Below are positions 6,629 through 13,890 of a DNA stretch of 64,000 bases, piece after piece (position 1 is the stretch's first letter; each line of letters starts with the position of its first letter). The stretch is from Botrytis cinerea B05.10 (Eukaryota; Ascomycota; Leotiomycetes; Helotiales; Sclerotiniaceae). The notes below the pieces were generated by a model. That model saw only the letters and a list, made by a program, of their open reading frames with translations, was not told the DNA's origin and ran no database searches. The position numbers and the translations under genes were made by a program. Location of the stretch: positions 1,736,001 to 1,800,000 of the forward strand of contig NC_037323.1 of NCBI RefSeq assembly GCF_000143535.2, given 5' to 3'.

Positions 6629-7748
6629 TCAATCTTTGCTTCTGGAGTCGTCTTCAGAATGGGGAGTATCGTAATGGGGCTTGGACTTCGTGCCGCGGTT
6701 GTGAATAGATATTGTGTTGTACTCATTAACAGCAAGATCAAACATCCCTGAATTACCATACTGGTCGTACATTATGACCGAAGGAGGATCAAACCACCAA
6801 CCAAGGTCCCAAATACCCAATGGACCCGACGTCTTCAAGCGAGTAAGACATAGAGAATTTGCATTCTCTCTAATAACAATATCTCTTGACCAAGCCTTTG
6901 GGTGCGGCGTTCCATCGACGTAGTGCGTCAATCCTGTGGTAAATGAAATAGTCGTTAATAAATATCAAATGGTTTGATCTAAACTGAAGAAGGGTGGTGT
7001 TGGAAAATAGAACTTGTAAAAAAATAAGAAGGATAAAACGAGACCTACCAGCGTTCACCGTCTTCCTTGGCCCCATAGGCCACATATAGTGTAGGTGTGG
7101 GCCTGCGCGATGATATGCTACGCTGTTGCGCATTCCCACAACTGCAAAATTTTCATCTCTGTATCCATAGCGGTCGGCTCTGATAAACGGGTGAACCTTG
7201 CTTCTGAGGAAATAGTTGTCCTGGTCCCAGCCGCTGCCGCTGGCGGTATCTTCTCTCCACCATTCGGAATTGGATAAAGAATACCGAATTTCCTGGTAGC
7301 CCCGAAAATCAATGTAAGAGTCGTTTTCTGCACTGCGGGTTGTGATCACTTTGCTGTTTGGCTGGGTAATACGTGCTCCAACTCTCTTGACCTCAGCTTT
7401 TGTTGTGCTGACCCAATATCGTTTATTTTGGTCCACCATAAATGGCTGCGTAGGAGGATCTCCTGCATCGGCGGCAAATCCTGTACCTTGAGGCATTGTG
7501 TGTGAAAATTCATTCTCAACAGATGTAAACTTCCATGGGCCAACGAGCTTCTCGTCAGTGTTGTAATAGTCAACTAACTCAATTTTCGCTAGCTCTGCCG
7601 CCGTCAAGAGGTATGGATCGTAGTTAATTGGATTTATTGCCTTGATCAAGACATTTGCAGCTACCTGCATCTGACCGTTCGCAAATAGAGAAGTTCCTGC
7701 CTCACTTGTATTTATACTCAAAAGTGTTACCTCCCATTGTACAGACAT
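6629..7748 (-). CDS. Unknown 334-residue protein divergently paired with the RHS gene
   Basis: Exon 1 is 7748..7049 and exon 2 is 6933..6629; the 115-nt intron has a GTAGGT donor and CACAG acceptor, and the join (NAG-LTHYVDG) stays in frame. The protein has no signal peptide or membrane span and is rich in Trp, Tyr and Asn. The first ~60 residues (FANGQMQV, then VLIKAINP, then IELVDYYNT) read like a beta-rich domain; later come YWVSTTK and SGSGWDQDNYF, and near the end a LCLTRL...WDLGWWF...YDQYGNSG region. The last ~20 residues are polar and charged. I have a vague impression of bacterial relatives of this layout but cannot name a family. It is the immediate divergent neighbour of the RHS gene, 1.3 kb away. 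It might be a partner, an immunity-like protein or unrelated. An adaptor role is only inference from position. Confidence 0.75.
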
Positions 7749-9048
7749 GATTCACGGTATCACTTGTGTGTGTAATTAACTTGAGGAAATAAGTATGTTG
7801 TGTGACGACGAATCTGATTGCTTAGAACTGGTAAGTTTAAGTGAGAAGTGCAATGAACAAAGTGTTCAGATCTCTCTTACTGGGCATATGAAGTGTTATA
7901 TGCACACACTACCACACTCAAATTCCTCTCCGCGCGTTTCCTTGGTTGTTATAGATTAGAGCACTGAAAGGTGCACTTGGTGGGCACACCTTAATTGTAC
8001 GCCCCCATTCTCCCCAACAGTCATCAATGAAGCTTGAAGAGGAGCATGATCATTAACAGTTTTGGCTTTCATTCAACGCCTCTTTACAAGTATGAAACAT
8101 ACGATCCCTCATTATCACACCACAATTTTTTAGTTTCACAAGTAAAGCTGTATCATGACAGTATATTATTCGAATTGATCATACATAATACTCGATTCGT
8201 CTCTCTCATTACTTTCCACATTGTACTTGGCGAGCTGAACATTGAAAGAGGGCTTGCTGACTATAATTACACGAATACGAACTCTGCACACAATTAAGTG
8301 AGGGCTTGGTGTACCCCTCTTGCCACGTTTCACGAGATTATGTATATCGCTTGAAATGTATGTTATGCATTGTCATGCCATTCAAGAAGAAGCTTTCTAC
8401 ATATCTGTGAGCAACAATATGGTACAACATGTTTAATTAATGCAGCTTACATCTGAAAGGCCTCGTTTATTCATCAAACTGCCTTAAAATACCCCGCTCA
8501 TGATCACTTTAGAGGTTGTAAAGCTTTCGTAACTGATTTCTTCTATGGTTAAACACACGATTATTTGTGTGCTGAAGCTTGTATTGAAAATGATGTGTTT
8601 TCAGTACTTTGGCCAAGGCCCGTTTCAGTACCAAAACTGAACCGGCTGCATTGAGTCTCCGAAGTCTAACCAACTCATGGGGCCTTTTACACAGATGCAA
8701 TGCATTGTTCGAGGTGTATGCTGGACCTCGCAAGCATCGATAACATTTCTCTATCAAAATCCCACTCGATACCACTGTGGCTGTAGATACCTAAGAGAAG
8801 TGAATTGAATAATATCATCTAGAGTCATTCTGGGCTGCCGAGATTGGTTAACCTCATGGATCCAACCACTGTTGAGATAGTTTTGTCCTTCGTTTCTTCT
8901 GCAGCTTGATTGGTCATCTTCGGCGAGGAGAAATAGAGGATAGCCCATTTCCTTCAAAAACAACTAGCCATCTACCTATGGTTATATTCTGAATTTAGTA
9001 ACACAACTATTGAAAGTTTTTCCCAAGTTATCTTTCATCAACGCAAAA
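7749..9048. other. Divergent promoter region between the 334-aa gene and the RHS gene
   Basis: These 1.3 kb separate two divergently transcribed genes and must contain both promoters. Only short unconvincing ORFs are present. No clear TATA pair, repeat or known binding-site array was recognised. Confidence 0.5.
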
Positions 9049-12000
9049 ATGACATCCAGTTCTACTATCTATTCTCAGGGGTTCAATTTTAGTGACTTTT
9101 TGCAGAAAGGCGTCGATCCACGCACAGGCCAATACACGTGTATGGTTGATCTATACGAAGCACCAATTCAAGCCAGAAATTGTCCTCCGTTCAAGCTGTC
9201 CTTATCCTTTCATCCCTTGAATACAAAGGATTTCGGATTAGGACAAGGATGGACATTCAACCTCCCTTCTTATGAACACCGCCAGTCGAACCGAGTAGTC
9301 AGCCTCTCTACAGGCGAGTCTTACCGAGTTACCGAAACATCTAGCGCCATCTTCACCACCGACCAAAAGCTCAAAAGCTCGACTTTGAAGAAACTGGATG
9401 CCAATACTTACCAGATTACATACAAATCGGGCCAGATCGAGACTTTATCCAATTTCAACAATAGATACAATAAGACTGTTCTCGTTGACTTATATGCATC
9501 CACTGGACGTTCCCTATCATTCACTTGGTCTGCGTTTGGTGAGATTGCTCGCCTCGACAAGATTCAGCAGGGCTCAGAAATCCTTCTTGAAGTCAAGTAT
9601 GGGGAATCTCAAGTGGAGATAACAAAAGCTCCGAATACACCCGAAGCAACTACATTCACTCTCATTCAAAGAAGCAATCAGCTGGTAGAGATCCGTTTTC
9701 CTTGGGATGGAGCGTCCTGGAAGTTCAACTATCAGAAGTTTGGCCAAATGGTTCATCTGAACAATGTAACTAGCCCGACTGGCCTCGTGGAGGAGATTAC
9801 CTACAAAGAACAAGGACATCGATTGCCAACAGGGGCCCCTTACCAGGCAATTCCTTATGCCATATCTCACACTTCACGTCCTGGAAACTCACAGCCTCCA
9901 ATCACAACCTCCTACACATATTCTGATTACAACTTTCTTGCATATGGTAGTAGCCAAAATTGGAAAGACGGAGAAGACAATCTGTTTCTTACTCGCGATG
10001 AATACCAATACACGTCAAATGTTCAAATTCAAGGCGGGATGGTAACGAAGAATACTTACAATAAGTTCCATCTTCTTATCAGTTCTGAACAACAGAAAGG
10101 TGTCAAGCAGGTCACTCAGAAGATCACATATCATGCGATCCCATTCGCATCATTTGAAAACCAACCTGCACAATATCAATTGCCCAAAACTGTCGAGACT
10201 ATCTACAAGGATACAGCTAGTCAGGCAACCCGCACGGAAACTAGCTATCATGTCTTTGACGAGTGGGGAAATCCTACACAAGACATCAGACCAACTGGTA
10301 TCCGAATCGATCGCAACTACTACCCACCAGCTGGTGATGGAATATATTGCCCACGTGATCCTCATGACTTCCAAAGATATCTGAAACGCGAGACAGTGAC
10401 ACCAGCTAATGCTGCGGGGCCAACTCGTAGTGAGCATTATACATATGCCCAAATGCCCACAGCGACTGGTGCAAAGGCGAGCTACCTTGTTGTTCTCCAA
10501 CAGAAGCAAAATATGGAAGGAACCCAGCTTCTTACCAAGTTCGATTACACTTATGTGAACAGTGCTGCAGCAAGAGATCACACCCGTCTTCAGAAACAGG
10601 TGACGCGGCTCTATGATCAATATCCCACAACACAGAGCTGGACCTACACATACCCCAGTAGCAGCCAATTTGTACAGACGATGGCCACGACGGCTTTCGA
10701 TAATTCTACAGTAGTGGAGGAGACGGGCTATTCATTGTGGTCAGGGCTTACAGCAACTCATAAGAATCAAACTGGCATTTCCACCCACTTTTACTACGAC
10801 AGCCTCGGTCGCTCAACCAAGATAGTTCACTCTCAAGGAACATCCTATGAATCCGTTGAGCGCCAGGAGTACATTTCCCTTGGAGTTAACAATGGATCCA
10901 GCAGAACAGTGACTGATGCAAAGGGAGTACAAACCCGCTACATCACAGATGGGTTGGAAAGGCTTTGGCGGGCTGAGAAACAGGATGACCAAGTGTTTCG
11001 GATGATCCAAGAAAACACCTATAACGCTCAGGATCAACTCATTACAACATCCGACATTGATTGGCTGAGAACAGACAAGATAGAGTCGCCATCTGAGCAA
11101 AAGAGCATTAAGTCAATGGAATATGACGATTGGGGCAAGGTCTATAGGGTGTCTGAAAATTCTGGCTTGCGTACATTGACCAACACAGATCCAATCACCA
11201 ACACAAAAGTTGAAGGTGTTGAAGGCGAGGGTATGACTAAGACCAAGTTGAATCTTTTCGGCGCGCCCACACAGATAGCACTCTATCGCAAGGACAATAC
11301 CCTCTACAGCAAAATGGACTACACCTATGATGGCCTGAATCGTCTTCTCAAGCAGCAGGATAATCTTGGTCGTGTAACTGAATACAAACCCGATTCCTTT
11401 GACCGGGTAGTTGAGACCATCTGGCCTGGTGCTCGCGTGGTCAAGACACAATATGCAAGTCAAACCACTGCCTTATTGCCGACTTCAGTGAAGCTTAATG
11501 ACCGAAAAGTGGGCGAGCAATCATTCGATGGATTAGGCCGTGTTACGAGGAAAGTCATTGGTACACGAACTACTAGCCAAAGTTATTCAGGAATTTCACC
11601 TGATCCAGCACAAATAACCAACGCGAAGGGAGAGCAACACAACTTGACCTACCAGTTAGCTTTGGATGGTGCGCTTACACAGATATCCAGTAGCAATCAT
11701 ACAGATGCCTATAAGTATGACGCTAAAACTGCTGCTCCGTTGCAGTTTAAAGGTGCTTATTCGACTCACGATCTACAATATCTGAATTCTGGGCTACTTT
11801 CTCGGGAAACCATATCTATTACTGGAGGCCAGACATTCTCTGCTCTGTATGCTTATTCAATGGCCGGAAAGTTGCAAAAGTATACCGATGCGAACGGGAA
11901 ATTGCAAGAGACCCGTTATGACGCGTTTGGAAGACCCCAACAGGTAGCACAAGGAAGATTGAAAGTATCATTTGTCTACGATAGCGCTAGTCGTGTAACA

Positions 12001-13890
12001 GAAAGTCGTGTCCAGGACGAAGAAAAGAATACAAAAATAACTACCAAATTGGCATACGATGACTTTGGTAGAGAAGTCAAACGATCTGTATACAGCGGTG
12101 AATCGACATTGATATATCATCTCAGTCAGACATATAATGGAGTTGGTCTTGTAGCTTCGCGCCTCCAGGAGAAAAGCAGTAGTGTGATGCGAAGCGAGAG
12201 TTTCGAATATGACGTCCATAACCGTCTTGTCAAGTATCAATGCCAAGGAAGCGAGCCTCCTGCAGATCAACAAGGAAATCTTCTGAAATCACAACAGTTC
12301 GTCTTCGATAACTACGATAATATTGTACAGACTTCCACAGTATTTCAAGACGGCAGCTCAAATACTTCTGCTAGCTCTTTCAACACACAAGACCCTACTC
12401 AACTCATTCAGGTCACCAACACGCATCCAAATTATCCATCCAAAGCGGTCCTCGAGTATGATTATAATGGATGCTTGACGCGCGATGAGCAAGGTCGAAG
12501 ACTTCAATATGATAACATGAGCCGATTGACTGATTTGCGAGATGTCAATAACAATGTTCTTGCGCAATATTTGTATGACGCGGCGGGAAACCTAGCGTGC
12601 CAGAAAGTGCCCAACCAACCAGACACAAGATTCTTCTATAGGGGGTCGCTTATAGCCGTGCAGAAAGGAGATCGTTTGGTGAGCTATTTGTCGAATGGAT
12701 CGGAGTATTGGGGGGAAACAGTTTCTCAACTGGGCGGAAGCATCGAAACCCATCTCTGGGCTTCTAATTGTCAACAGTCTATTCTCACCACATTAGATTC
12801 TCAGAATCCTAACCAGATTCAAACCCAGCAGTACACGCCGTATGGATGTTCTGGCTCGGAAGCTGGATCTTCCTTTTCTTCTATTAGCTTCAATGGTCAA
12901 TGGCGAGATCCTGTTACAGGGTGGTACCATCTAGGCAATGGGTATAGAGTTTACAATCCCCAGCTCAGAAGATTCCACACACCTGATCCATGGGCTCCAT
13001 TCGCATCCGGAGAAATCAATCCTTATGTATACTGTTTAGGAGATCCCATCAATCGAGTAGATCCAAATGGTCATTTGAGTATCTTTGGCATAAATTTTAC
13101 GTGGAAAGACCTCATCATGGTGGTAGTTGGAATCGCTGTTAGTGTAGGTGTTGGGATTCTAACAGGTGGTGCAAGCTTGGCTATACAGGTTGGTGTTGGT
13201 ATCGCGGCAGGGGTTGTTTCCGATGTAGCATCTGGTATGCTTGGAAGTGTCGCAAATGGGGAACAGATAACTTGGAGAAGTGTTGGTTTAGATGCTCTTG
13301 GTGGGTTGTTAGGTGGAATAGGTGGTGAGATTGGTGGTAATATTCTCAAACAAGGATTCAAATCCACCAAGGCTTTACCAACTGCTCTCAAAAAGATAGT
13401 AGGTAGGGCAGGCTCGTACAATGTCACCAAAGAAGTGGCGGAAGGGATTGCCAGTAAAAGCATAACAGCTATAAAGAGCGGGTTGCGAGCTTCTGCGCGA
13501 GGGTTAATCCCGGGCCAAGCGACATCACGAGGGTTGGTACCTCTCATCGCCCCTGATTCCCAGGATGAGAACGAGCAATCTCAGGGAGGATCTTCGAAAT
13601 TGACAGCCAGTAGTGGCAACGATAATTTCTCGACTGCCCCACTAGGACGTTCCGGGCCTGCACAAGTTGGTAGCCATTCTTTCTATCTTGACAGAGGATC
13701 TTTCGTAACGAGAGATGTCATACGACCTCTCATGAAGGATGGTGATTATACCGCCATGTCGACATCATTTATGAGCAACTATGGCAATGTGTCCAGTGCT
13801 GGGCAATCTGCTGTTGCATCCCTACTTGGGCGTCAAATTAGGTTTACCTATGGCCCACTAACTAATACGCAATCGGAGGAAGATTCTTAG
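9049..13890 (+). CDS. RHS/YD-repeat protein, Tc-toxin C-component style, intronless
   Basis: The gene encodes 1,613 residues without an intron, unusual beside intron-rich neighbours. The first ATG in the open frame (9049) is used. There is no signal peptide. An N-terminal signature (GVDPRTGQYT, residues ~20-30) and a GDGIYCPRDPHDFQRYLK block (~430) are typical of bacterial RHS proteins. Many YD/RHS repeats follow (YDSLGR, YDAFGR, YDGLNR, YDDFGR, YDNMSRL, YDAAGN) between ~590 and 1,200. The RHS-associated core (SFNGQWRDPVTGWYHLGNGYR to DPINRVDPNGH) ends near residue 1,340, where bacterial homologues self-cleave using aspartates. The last ~270 residues differ from any toxin domain I know: two Gly/Val-rich hydrophobic stretches, then a polar tail. 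In bacteria such proteins form a hollow beta shell around a C-terminal effector. In fungi the role is unknown; bacterial origin by transfer is inferred. The reading frame is intact. Confidence 0.9.
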   Translation: MTSSSTIYSQGFNFSDFLQKGVDPRTGQYTCMVDLYEAPIQARNCPPFKLSLSFHPLNTKDFGLGQGWTFNLPSYEHRQSNRVVSLSTGESYRVTETSSAIFTTDQKLKSSTLKKLDANTYQITYKSGQIETLSNFNNRYNKTVLVDLYASTGRSLSFTWSAFGEIARLDKIQQGSEILLEVKYGESQVEITKAPNTPEATTFTLIQRSNQLVEIRFPWDGASWKFNYQKFGQMVHLNNVTSPTGLVEEITYKEQGHRLPTGAPYQAIPYAISHTSRPGNSQPPITTSYTYSDYNFLAYGSSQNWKDGEDNLFLTRDEYQYTSNVQIQGGMVTKNTYNKFHLLISSEQQKGVKQVTQKITYHAIPFASFENQPAQYQLPKTVETIYKDTASQATRTETSYHVFDEWGNPTQDIRPTGIRIDRNYYPPAGDGIYCPRDPHDFQRYLKRETVTPANAAGPTRSEHYTYAQMPTATGAKASYLVVLQQKQNMEGTQLLTKFDYTYVNSAAARDHTRLQKQVTRLYDQYPTTQSWTYTYPSSSQFVQTMATTAFDNSTVVEETGYSLWSGLTATHKNQTGISTHFYYDSLGRSTKIVHSQGTSYESVERQEYISLGVNNGSSRTVTDAKGVQTRYITDGLERLWRAEKQDDQVFRMIQENTYNAQDQLITTSDIDWLRTDKIESPSEQKSIKSMEYDDWGKVYRVSENSGLRTLTNTDPITNTKVEGVEGEGMTKTKLNLFGAPTQIALYRKDNTLYSKMDYTYDGLNRLLKQQDNLGRVTEYKPDSFDRVVETIWPGARVVKTQYASQTTALLPTSVKLNDRKVGEQSFDGLGRVTRKVIGTRTTSQSYSGISPDPAQITNAKGEQHNLTYQLALDGALTQISSSNHTDAYKYDAKTAAPLQFKGAYSTHDLQYLNSGLLSRETISITGGQTFSALYAYSMAGKLQKYTDANGKLQETRYDAFGRPQQVAQGRLKVSFVYDSASRVTESRVQDEEKNTKITTKLAYDDFGREVKRSVYSGESTLIYHLSQTYNGVGLVASRLQEKSSSVMRSESFEYDVHNRLVKYQCQGSEPPADQQGNLLKSQQFVFDNYDNIVQTSTVFQDGSSNTSASSFNTQDPTQLIQVTNTHPNYPSKAVLEYDYNGCLTRDEQGRRLQYDNMSRLTDLRDVNNNVLAQYLYDAAGNLACQKVPNQPDTRFFYRGSLIAVQKGDRLVSYLSNGSEYWGETVSQLGGSIETHLWASNCQQSILTTLDSQNPNQIQTQQYTPYGCSGSEAGSSFSSISFNGQWRDPVTGWYHLGNGYRVYNPQLRRFHTPDPWAPFASGEINPYVYCLGDPINRVDPNGHLSIFGINFTWKDLIMVVVGIAVSVGVGILTGGASLAIQVGVGIAAGVVSDVASGMLGSVANGEQITWRSVGLDALGGLLGGIGGEIGGNILKQGFKSTKALPTALKKIVGRAGSYNVTKEVAEGIASKSITAIKSGLRASARGLIPGQATSRGLVPLIAPDSQDENEQSQGGSSKLTASSGNDNFSTAPLGRSGPAQVGSHSFYLDRGSFVTRDVIRPLMKDGDYTAMSTSFMSNYGNVSSAGQSAVASLLGRQIRFTYGPLTNTQSEEDS

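What the first reader, a model, noticed from the sequence alone, without database searches (positions are those of the whole stretch)
9049..13890. Intact, intronless bacterial-style RHS/Tc C-component gene in a fungal chromosome
The gene reads through 4.8 kb without an intron, while all well-supported larger neighbours except the WW kinase and Sde2 carry introns. Its N-terminal signature, YD repeats and RHS-associated core are those of bacterial RHS proteins. That it stays open suggests selection. It has no signal peptide and no visible TcA or TcB partner in the window, so how or whether it is delivered is unknown. A domesticated role (for example in fungal competition, conflict or defence) is only inference.
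Basis: partly seen in the sequence, partly recalled or inferred. Interest (0 to 1): 0.78.

Follow-up and report, generated by a model that had tools for sequence, protein, structure and literature searches.

The report
Fungal RHS shell with linked companion
The grey-mould fungus carries an intact gene for a toxin-carrying shell of bacterial type, next to a companion gene related to one beside the same shell gene in some bacteria; its toxin end lacks residues that some relatives keep, so fungi may have turned a bacterial weapon to another use.

Summary
The gene is real: one ATG-started frame of 1613 aa (9049-13890), the only RHS gene found in a chromosome-level Botrytis cinerea genome. It is not a Tc C component: it is a single-chain RHS shell, and no TcB-type domain was found in the genome. 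It is not a recent one-off: all 93 named relatives among 120 listed are fungal, and 56 fungal or environmental rows lie on one side of a branch from 12 bacteria. Of 39 such proteins found, 15 share a contig with a listed RHS protein, beside two unrelated kinds of tip, so it is hardly a tip-specific immunity protein. Tips are polymorphic: a His/Cys class shared with bacteria, a YoeB/Txp40-like class, others. In the Botrytis tip class 0 of 50 tails keep the His or Cys that most of its sister class has; the autocleavage residues are near-invariant. Best reading: a bacterial polymorphic-toxin module acquired by fungi, shell and companion kept, tip disarmed here. Function is inferred.

The parts
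9049..13890 (+). RHS shell protein gene, 1613 aa, single exon (probably Bcin14g04460; that name is by inference)
   Evidence: Bcin14g04460.1 is listed as RHS repeat protein in PMC5987419 (passages)
9049..13071 (+). residues 1-1341: YD shell and RHS core, conserved across fungi
   Evidence: conservation profile of 120 proteins; beta model of residues 430-1613; Foldseek hits to Rhs, teneurin and Tc shells
12832..13074 (+). RHS-associated core (residues 1262-1342) with conserved R1300, D1313, D1338 at the presumed autocleavage positions
   Evidence: 119, 118 and 119 of 120; correspondence to the published residues by motif order only
13072..13398 (+). residues 1342-1450: hydrophobic, Gly-rich stretch after the core, moderately conserved
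13399..13887 (+). residues 1451-1613: variable tip, class A, without the His/Cys pair of class B
   Evidence: no confident structure
7049..7748 (-). companion gene, exon 1 (divergent from the RHS gene)
6934..7048 (-). companion intron, 115 nt, GT...AG, predicted
   Evidence: the B. cinerea record P0121 has the same 334-aa product at 98% identity over its whole length
6629..6933 (-). companion gene, exon 2 to stop (whole protein 334 aa)
7749..9048 (.). 1.3-kb shared intergenic region between the two divergent start codons
   Evidence: coordinates

Best explanation
This is one half of a two-gene module of bacterial origin. Gene 1 makes a single-chain RHS (YD-repeat) shell that probably cuts off its own C-terminal tip at the RHS core and keeps it inside. 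Gene 2, divergent and next to it, makes a companion protein built of Ig-like beta-sandwich domains, which probably binds the shell (cap, adaptor or target-binding arm). Fungi took up the module from one bacterial lineage and then spread and diversified it; other fungi carry different tips on the shell. In the Botrytis lineage the tip looks like a remnant of a His/Cys (caspase-like) tip without its His and Cys, while shell, autocleavage residues and companion are kept. The shell and companion are therefore most likely retained for something other than the old enzyme: binding, adhesion or recognition, or storage of the tail peptide. Shown by calls: gene structure, shell identity, companion homology and linkage, tip classes, absence of the His/Cys pair. 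Inferred: autocleavage, shell-companion binding, place of action, loss of toxicity.
For: Full-length relatives in bacteria (residues 1-1350, about 25-34% identity). 56 fungal or environmental rows are one side of a branch from 12 bacteria, SH-aLRT 100. Companion: fungal against bacterial profile Prob 99.1, E 3.7e-19 for that one comparison, columns 6-316; directly upstream of RHS in 8 of 12 bacterial tree members. The only plasmid hit of the fungal companion in 7.3 Gb (E 0.4, not significant alone) lies directly upstream of an RHS relative. 15 of 39 companion hits share contig length with a listed RHS hit, 7 of them with consecutive locus tags. It occurs with tip classes A, B and C, C being unrelated to A and B. 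Class A against class B profiles Prob 98.3, E 1.2e-14; Cys 0 of 50 against 20 of 26, His 0 of 50 against 16 of 26. R1300, D1313, D1338 in 119, 118, 119 of 120. Companion model pLDDT 84.3, Ig-like. Transcripts of the orthologue in three Monilinia species (passages).
Confidence: 0.6

Rival explanations
1. Working weapon: the conserved tail, or the hydrophobic Gly-rich stretch before it, is itself toxic (for example to membranes), and the protein serves in fungal competition or infection.
For: Tail conserved among several Sclerotiniaceae; hydrophobic stretch at residues 1348-1395, moderately conserved; autocleavage residues kept; some other fungi carry tips related to a known toxin; Tse5, the one sequence hit among solved structures (E 9.3e-6), is a pore-forming Rhs toxin by the title of PMC10684867 (search listing).
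Against: Class A tips lack the pair that most of the sister class has, are Ser/Gln-rich and have no confident model; no hydrophobic N-terminus; fungi have no T6SS (recalled).
Confidence: 0.25
2. Tc-like injector: the RHS shell is loaded on one of the two TcA-like proteins of this genome, with the companion acting in place of TcB.
For: Two TcA-like genes with ABC_toxin_N, neuraminidase-like and TcB-binding domains; shell fold like TcB-TcC; a Metarhizium Tc complex with unlinked TcA is reported (PMC13236867, abstract and passages).
Against: No SpvB or TcdB_midN match in the genome; TcA genes lie on other contigs beside RhoGEF and GH47 genes; the companion is Ig-like, whereas TcB binds TcA through a propeller (recalled); none of 7 plasmid loci with shell and companion has a gene annotated as TcA within 5-7 kb (many genes there are only 'hypothetical').
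Confidence: 0.08
3. Companion is an immunity protein.
For: Linked smaller gene beside a toxin-like gene; immunity genes are typical of polymorphic toxins (recalled; PMC3482391 in passages).
Against: It goes with two unrelated kinds of tip in fungi (A/B and C) and lies upstream in the 8 bacterial loci where it was found.
Confidence: 0.05
4. Contamination or a very recent transfer into this strain.
For: Intronless bacterial-type gene.
Against: In a contig of at least 1.8 Mb among fungal genes; present in another B. cinerea record and four more Botrytis species at 88-91% identity; the companion has a predicted intron.
Confidence: 0.01

Closest known systems
Single-chain bacterial Rhs/YD-repeat polymorphic toxins (RhsA, RhsP, Tse5, Tse15)
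   Same: YD shell, RHS core with conserved Arg/Asp residues, variable tip after the core; among the top Foldseek hits
   Different: No PAAR or T6SS adaptor, eukaryotic nuclear gene, divergent Ig-like companion, tip class without the His/Cys pair
Tc toxin TcB-TcC cocoon; fungal Tc complex of Metarhizium brunneum (PMC13236867, abstract and passages)
   Same: YD shell fold; occurrence in fungi; TcA-like genes also in this genome
   Different: One chain instead of a B-C split; no SpvB or TcdB domains; no TcB found in the genome; the companion is a different protein
Teneurins and bacterial teneurin-like proteins (PMC13018210, passages)
   Same: A bacterial YD shell taken over by a eukaryote; Foldseek hits 9ifo, 6fb3 and others
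   Different: No transmembrane or EGF part found; separate Ig-like companion; another kingdom. PMC6428715 (abstract passages) says fungi have no teneurins
Txp40, the 40-kDa insecticidal toxin (7xbj; the name Txp40 is recalled), and YoeB mRNA interferases
   Same: A profile of 5 of the 22 class C tails matches 7xbj residues 271-365 (E 9.1e-15) and YoeB (E 0.003)
   Different: Not present in the Botrytis protein
Ss-Rhs1 of Sclerotinia sclerotiorum (its paper is not held; seen only as cited in PMC7168625, PMC7065775, PMC6390599)
   Same: Called a secreted Rhs repeat-containing protein needed for full virulence
   Different: Said to occur only in Sclerotinia and Botrytis, whereas this family is broad; identity with this gene could not be tested

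Membership tests
Rhs/YD-repeat polymorphic toxin (single-chain) | YD repeats and RHS-associated core | tested here: met
Rhs/YD-repeat polymorphic toxin (single-chain) | YD-repeat beta-strand fold | tested here: met
   strands throughout residues about 460-1270, pLDDT mostly over 80; Foldseek E 1e-36 to Rhs cores
Rhs/YD-repeat polymorphic toxin (single-chain) | shell closed around a cavity | tested here: inconclusive
   residues 1-429 not modelled; TM-scores 0.15-0.52 and rmsd 9-27 A against the Rhs, teneurin and Tc hits at the top of the list
Rhs/YD-repeat polymorphic toxin (single-chain) | autocleavage residues before the tip | tested here: met
   R1300, D1313, D1338 in 119, 118, 119 of 120; activity not testable here
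Rhs/YD-repeat polymorphic toxin (single-chain) | variable, exchangeable C-terminal tips in the family | tested here: met
   tip classes; at least 11 label changes on the shell tree, 8 after merging; 16 of 65 inner branches are weak and no shuffle control was run on these changes
Rhs/YD-repeat polymorphic toxin (single-chain) | this protein's own tip is a working toxin | tested here: inconclusive
   His/Cys of class B absent in 50 of 50 class A tails; no assay
Tc toxin C component | shell completed by a TcB partner with SpvB and TcdB middle domains | tested here: not met
   no PF12256 or PF03534 match in the genome; the protein itself spans the length of single-chain shells
Tc toxin C component | TcA in the same genome | tested here: met
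   two genes, on other contigs
Teneurin | type II membrane protein with EGF repeats | tested here: not met
   no such Pfam family at E up to 1; no hydrophobic N-terminal segment
T6SS Rhs effector | PAAR- or VgrG-linked N-terminus | tested here: not met
   no PAAR family in Pfam or NCBIfam at E up to 1; the N-terminus starts with the RHS leader motif

The most novel reading that the evidence does not exclude
Fungi domesticated a bacterial RHS shell together with its operon companion, as animals domesticated the teneurin shell, but here as a two-gene module whose partner kept its link and gained an intron. Some fungal lineages still exchange live tips (YoeB/Txp40-like, His/Cys protease-like), so fungi would own a polymorphic-toxin system of their own. 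The Botrytis lineage has extinguished the tip and uses shell plus Ig-like companion as a recognition or adhesion device.
Probability: 0.35. Interest if true: 0.9.

Novelty: new variant of a known kind. Interest (0 to 1): 0.74.

Why it matters
It would be a further take-over of a bacterial RHS shell by a eukaryotic kingdom, and one in which the bacterial operon partner came along and stayed linked. It points to a companion protein family with no Pfam match at cut-off in six members tested and none in NCBIfam for two bacterial members, which marks an RHS subfamily in bacteria too. It makes testable whether fungi run a polymorphic-toxin system with exchangeable tips, and what a disarmed shell is kept for.

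Tried and rejected
Immunity-protein reading of the companion: set aside because it goes with two unrelated kinds of tip. Tc C component: set aside on missing TcB and the single-chain shell. Contamination: rejected.

Tips. The Botrytis tail gave no confident model (pLDDT under 50 from residue about 1313 on), so no fold is claimed for it. Class limits depend on the threshold: at E 1e-3 with half-length overlap, or at 1e-6, classes fall together in a group of 77 tails that holds A and part or all of B, and A and B part at 1e-10. Profiles used parts of classes: 15 of 26 B tails (the length-filtered B set gave 90.4%, E 1.4e-6), 5 of 26 plus 2 bacterial, 5 of 22 C tails. Class B against solved structures: no hit at E up to 10; 'caspase-like' is my reading of the His-Gly and Cys pattern. 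'ParB-like' for class E is recalled pattern only. Pfam HigB for class C was weak (E 0.022, 1 of 27 members). 118 of 120 tails were clustered (2 under 30 residues dropped). 388 homologues exist, of which only 120 were listed and used. One search translated two bacterial tips out of frame; one search repeated it in frame and only that is used for the bacterial tips.

Companion. Sequence profiles against solved structures gave nothing useful. A count in Enterobacterales gave 3 of 394 genomes: G001 (the genome of L004, known beforehand) and G176 lie by an RHS relative (G176 divergent, matches about 2.5 kb apart, companion E only 5e-4); for G006 only 2,356 bases were seen, without RHS. The 12 bacterial tree members were chosen by long RHS frames, not at random. 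In L034 the upstream gene is annotated as a penicillin-binding transpeptidase domain protein, not as hypothetical; I still count it by alignment. Rahnella L036 (1133-aa upstream protein) and Psychromonas L021 look companion-like by eye only; L038 has a 146-aa stub. These three are not counted.

Papers. Searches showed no description of this module in fungi, judged from listings (20 of 68 papers, 20 of 31, 20 of 32, 10 of 70; the other lists were shown whole) and from passages. PMC3482391, which reports toxin domains moved to fungi, was seen in 12 of 116 passages and is held only in its first 300,000 characters, so an RHS shell in fungi could be named there unseen.

Full report
What is there. 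The frame 9049-13890 codes for 1613 aa without an intron. It lies at C14:1745049-1749887 of a 42,630,066-base, 18-contig genome, whose nearest protein record is Botrytis cinerea (P0001; 8 differences in 1613 residues). It is the only RHS gene found in that genome with the protein itself, the RHS-core model or the RHS repeat model. Domains are YD repeats and an RHS core at residues 1262-1342. Of seven other frames of the window five are ordinary eukaryotic genes by Pfam and two have no family; composition fits.

Shell. An AlphaFold2 model of residues 430-1613 is a long run of beta strands with good confidence to about residue 1255, lower to about 1312 and none after (pTM 0.65). Foldseek places it with Rhs T6SS effectors, Tse15, a bacterial teneurin-like protein, RhsA, Tse5, teneurins and TcB-TcC at E under 1e-27 for the best 37 rows, but with TM-scores of 0.15-0.52: this supports the class of fold, not a detailed match or a closed cavity. 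Among 120 listed relatives the residues at the presumed autocleavage positions are R1300 in 119, D1313 in 118 and D1338 in 119. Their role is taken over from other Rhs proteins: a passage of PMC8455502 names one Arg and two Asp.

Relatives. The search found 388 proteins, of which 120 were listed. 93 of the 120 carry a species name, all fungal: five Botrytis species, Ciborinia and Sclerotinia borealis at 78-100% identity, Monilinia fructigena 73%, then Metarhizium, Beauveria, Trichoderma, Aspergillus, Penicillium, truffle, lichen, Mycena and others at 41-62%; 27 are environmental without a name. Bacterial full-length relatives exist at about 25-34% identity on chromosomes and plasmids. In a tree of the shell (1365 columns; 49 named fungal and 7 environmental rows, 12 bacteria) the fungal rows are one side of a branch with SH-aLRT 100. 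Within fungi the order does not follow the species tree: Mycena sits beside Lasiosphaeris, Peltigera beside Choiromyces, and Aspergillus is in several places. This fits one entry from bacteria followed by spread, duplication and loss among fungi. The tree is a quick one without bootstrap, 16 of 65 inner branches are weak, and four bacterial end branches are long.

Tips. After residue about 1450 conservation falls sharply. The 118 tails of at least 30 residues fall into classes A 50, B 26, C 22, D 9, E 4, F 3 and four singles at E 1e-10; at looser thresholds A and B merge. On the shell tree the labels need at least 11 changes, or 8 when related classes are merged to three kinds, which points to exchange of tips. 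A profile of five class C tails matches the C-terminal part of the 40-kDa insecticidal toxin 7xbj (E 9.1e-15) and YoeB interferases (E 0.003). Class B shares a His-Gly and a Cys with bacterial tips of the same shell family (profile E 1.1e-8; H17, G18, C73 invariant in the seven rows). The Botrytis tail is class A, related to B by profile (98.3%, E 1.2e-14), though not to the bacterial tips directly. At those columns it has Cys in 0 of 50 (6 gaps) and His in 0 of 50, against 20 and 16 of 26 in class B; 30 of 50 tails hold a Cys elsewhere, and the columns are less sure in such loose tails. The companion occurs with A (Botrytis and others), B (Peltigera, Choiromyces, Myotisia) and C (A. fumigatus, A. 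heteromorphus); C shows no relation to A or B.

Tc question. No SpvB or TcdB_midN match is in the genome, so the protein is not a Tc C component by the tests made. Yet two TcA-like genes are present on C3 and C7, with the ABC_toxin_N and neuraminidase-like domains and, at E 1e-109 to 1e-115, the TcB-binding domain, beside RhoGEF and GH47 genes. A Tc complex with an unlinked TcA is described in Metarhizium (PMC13236867; abstract and passages).

Use. The orthologue is transcribed in Monilinia: RPKM 104.0, 11.6 and 9.2 in M. fructicola, M. laxa and M. fructigena, matched there to Bcin14g04460.1 and called an RHS repeat protein (PMC5987419, passages). That this is the window's gene is inferred from its being the only RHS gene found in the genome and lying on contig 14. 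Ss-Rhs1 of Sclerotinia, called a secreted virulence factor, is said to be limited to Sclerotinia and Botrytis (PMC7168625, passage), so it is probably another protein; its paper was not held.

Verdict. A real and widely shared fungal gene of bacterial type: a new variant of the Rhs polymorphic toxins, with a linked companion family and, in this lineage, a tip without the catalytic-looking pair of its relatives. How it works in the fungus is inference.

Noticed in passing
own genome, about C3:1139992-1149286 (+) and C7:2039793-2049154 (-), extents from open frames; loci L043-L046: Two TcA-like genes (ABC_toxin_N, neuraminidase-like and TcB-binding domains) in a genome without a TcB match; neighbours RhoGEF and GH47 genes.
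   Followed up: partly
relatives of class C, such as P0022, P0030, P0037: Fungal RHS proteins with tips related to the 40-kDa insecticidal toxin and YoeB (5 of 22 tails in the profile); the class includes P0094 Ciborinia, P0096 Monilinia, P0100 Sclerotinia trifoliorum and P0101 Botrytis porri, a clade apart from the Botrytis cinerea gene.
   Followed up: partly
P0065, P0085, P0087, P0091, P0097, P0098, P0099, P0103, P0107: Class D tips, the named ones from Aspergillus and Penicillium, look like shortened remnants of class C (87.2%, E 3.8e-6): perhaps a second lineage with an eroded tip.
   Followed up: no
L036 1443-4844: In Rahnella a 1133-aa protein upstream of an RHS gene in pieces ends like the companion, by eye.
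   Followed up: no
L032 2257-2547: A putative holin about 4.5 kb upstream of the RHS gene on an Enterobacter plasmid from dead Helicoverpa larvae; could bear on release by lysis.
   Followed up: no
L034 1-17295: In Azospirillum the companion and RHS genes lie between an NRPS gene (with a hydrolase and a hypothetical gene between) and a polyketide synthase gene.
   Followed up: no
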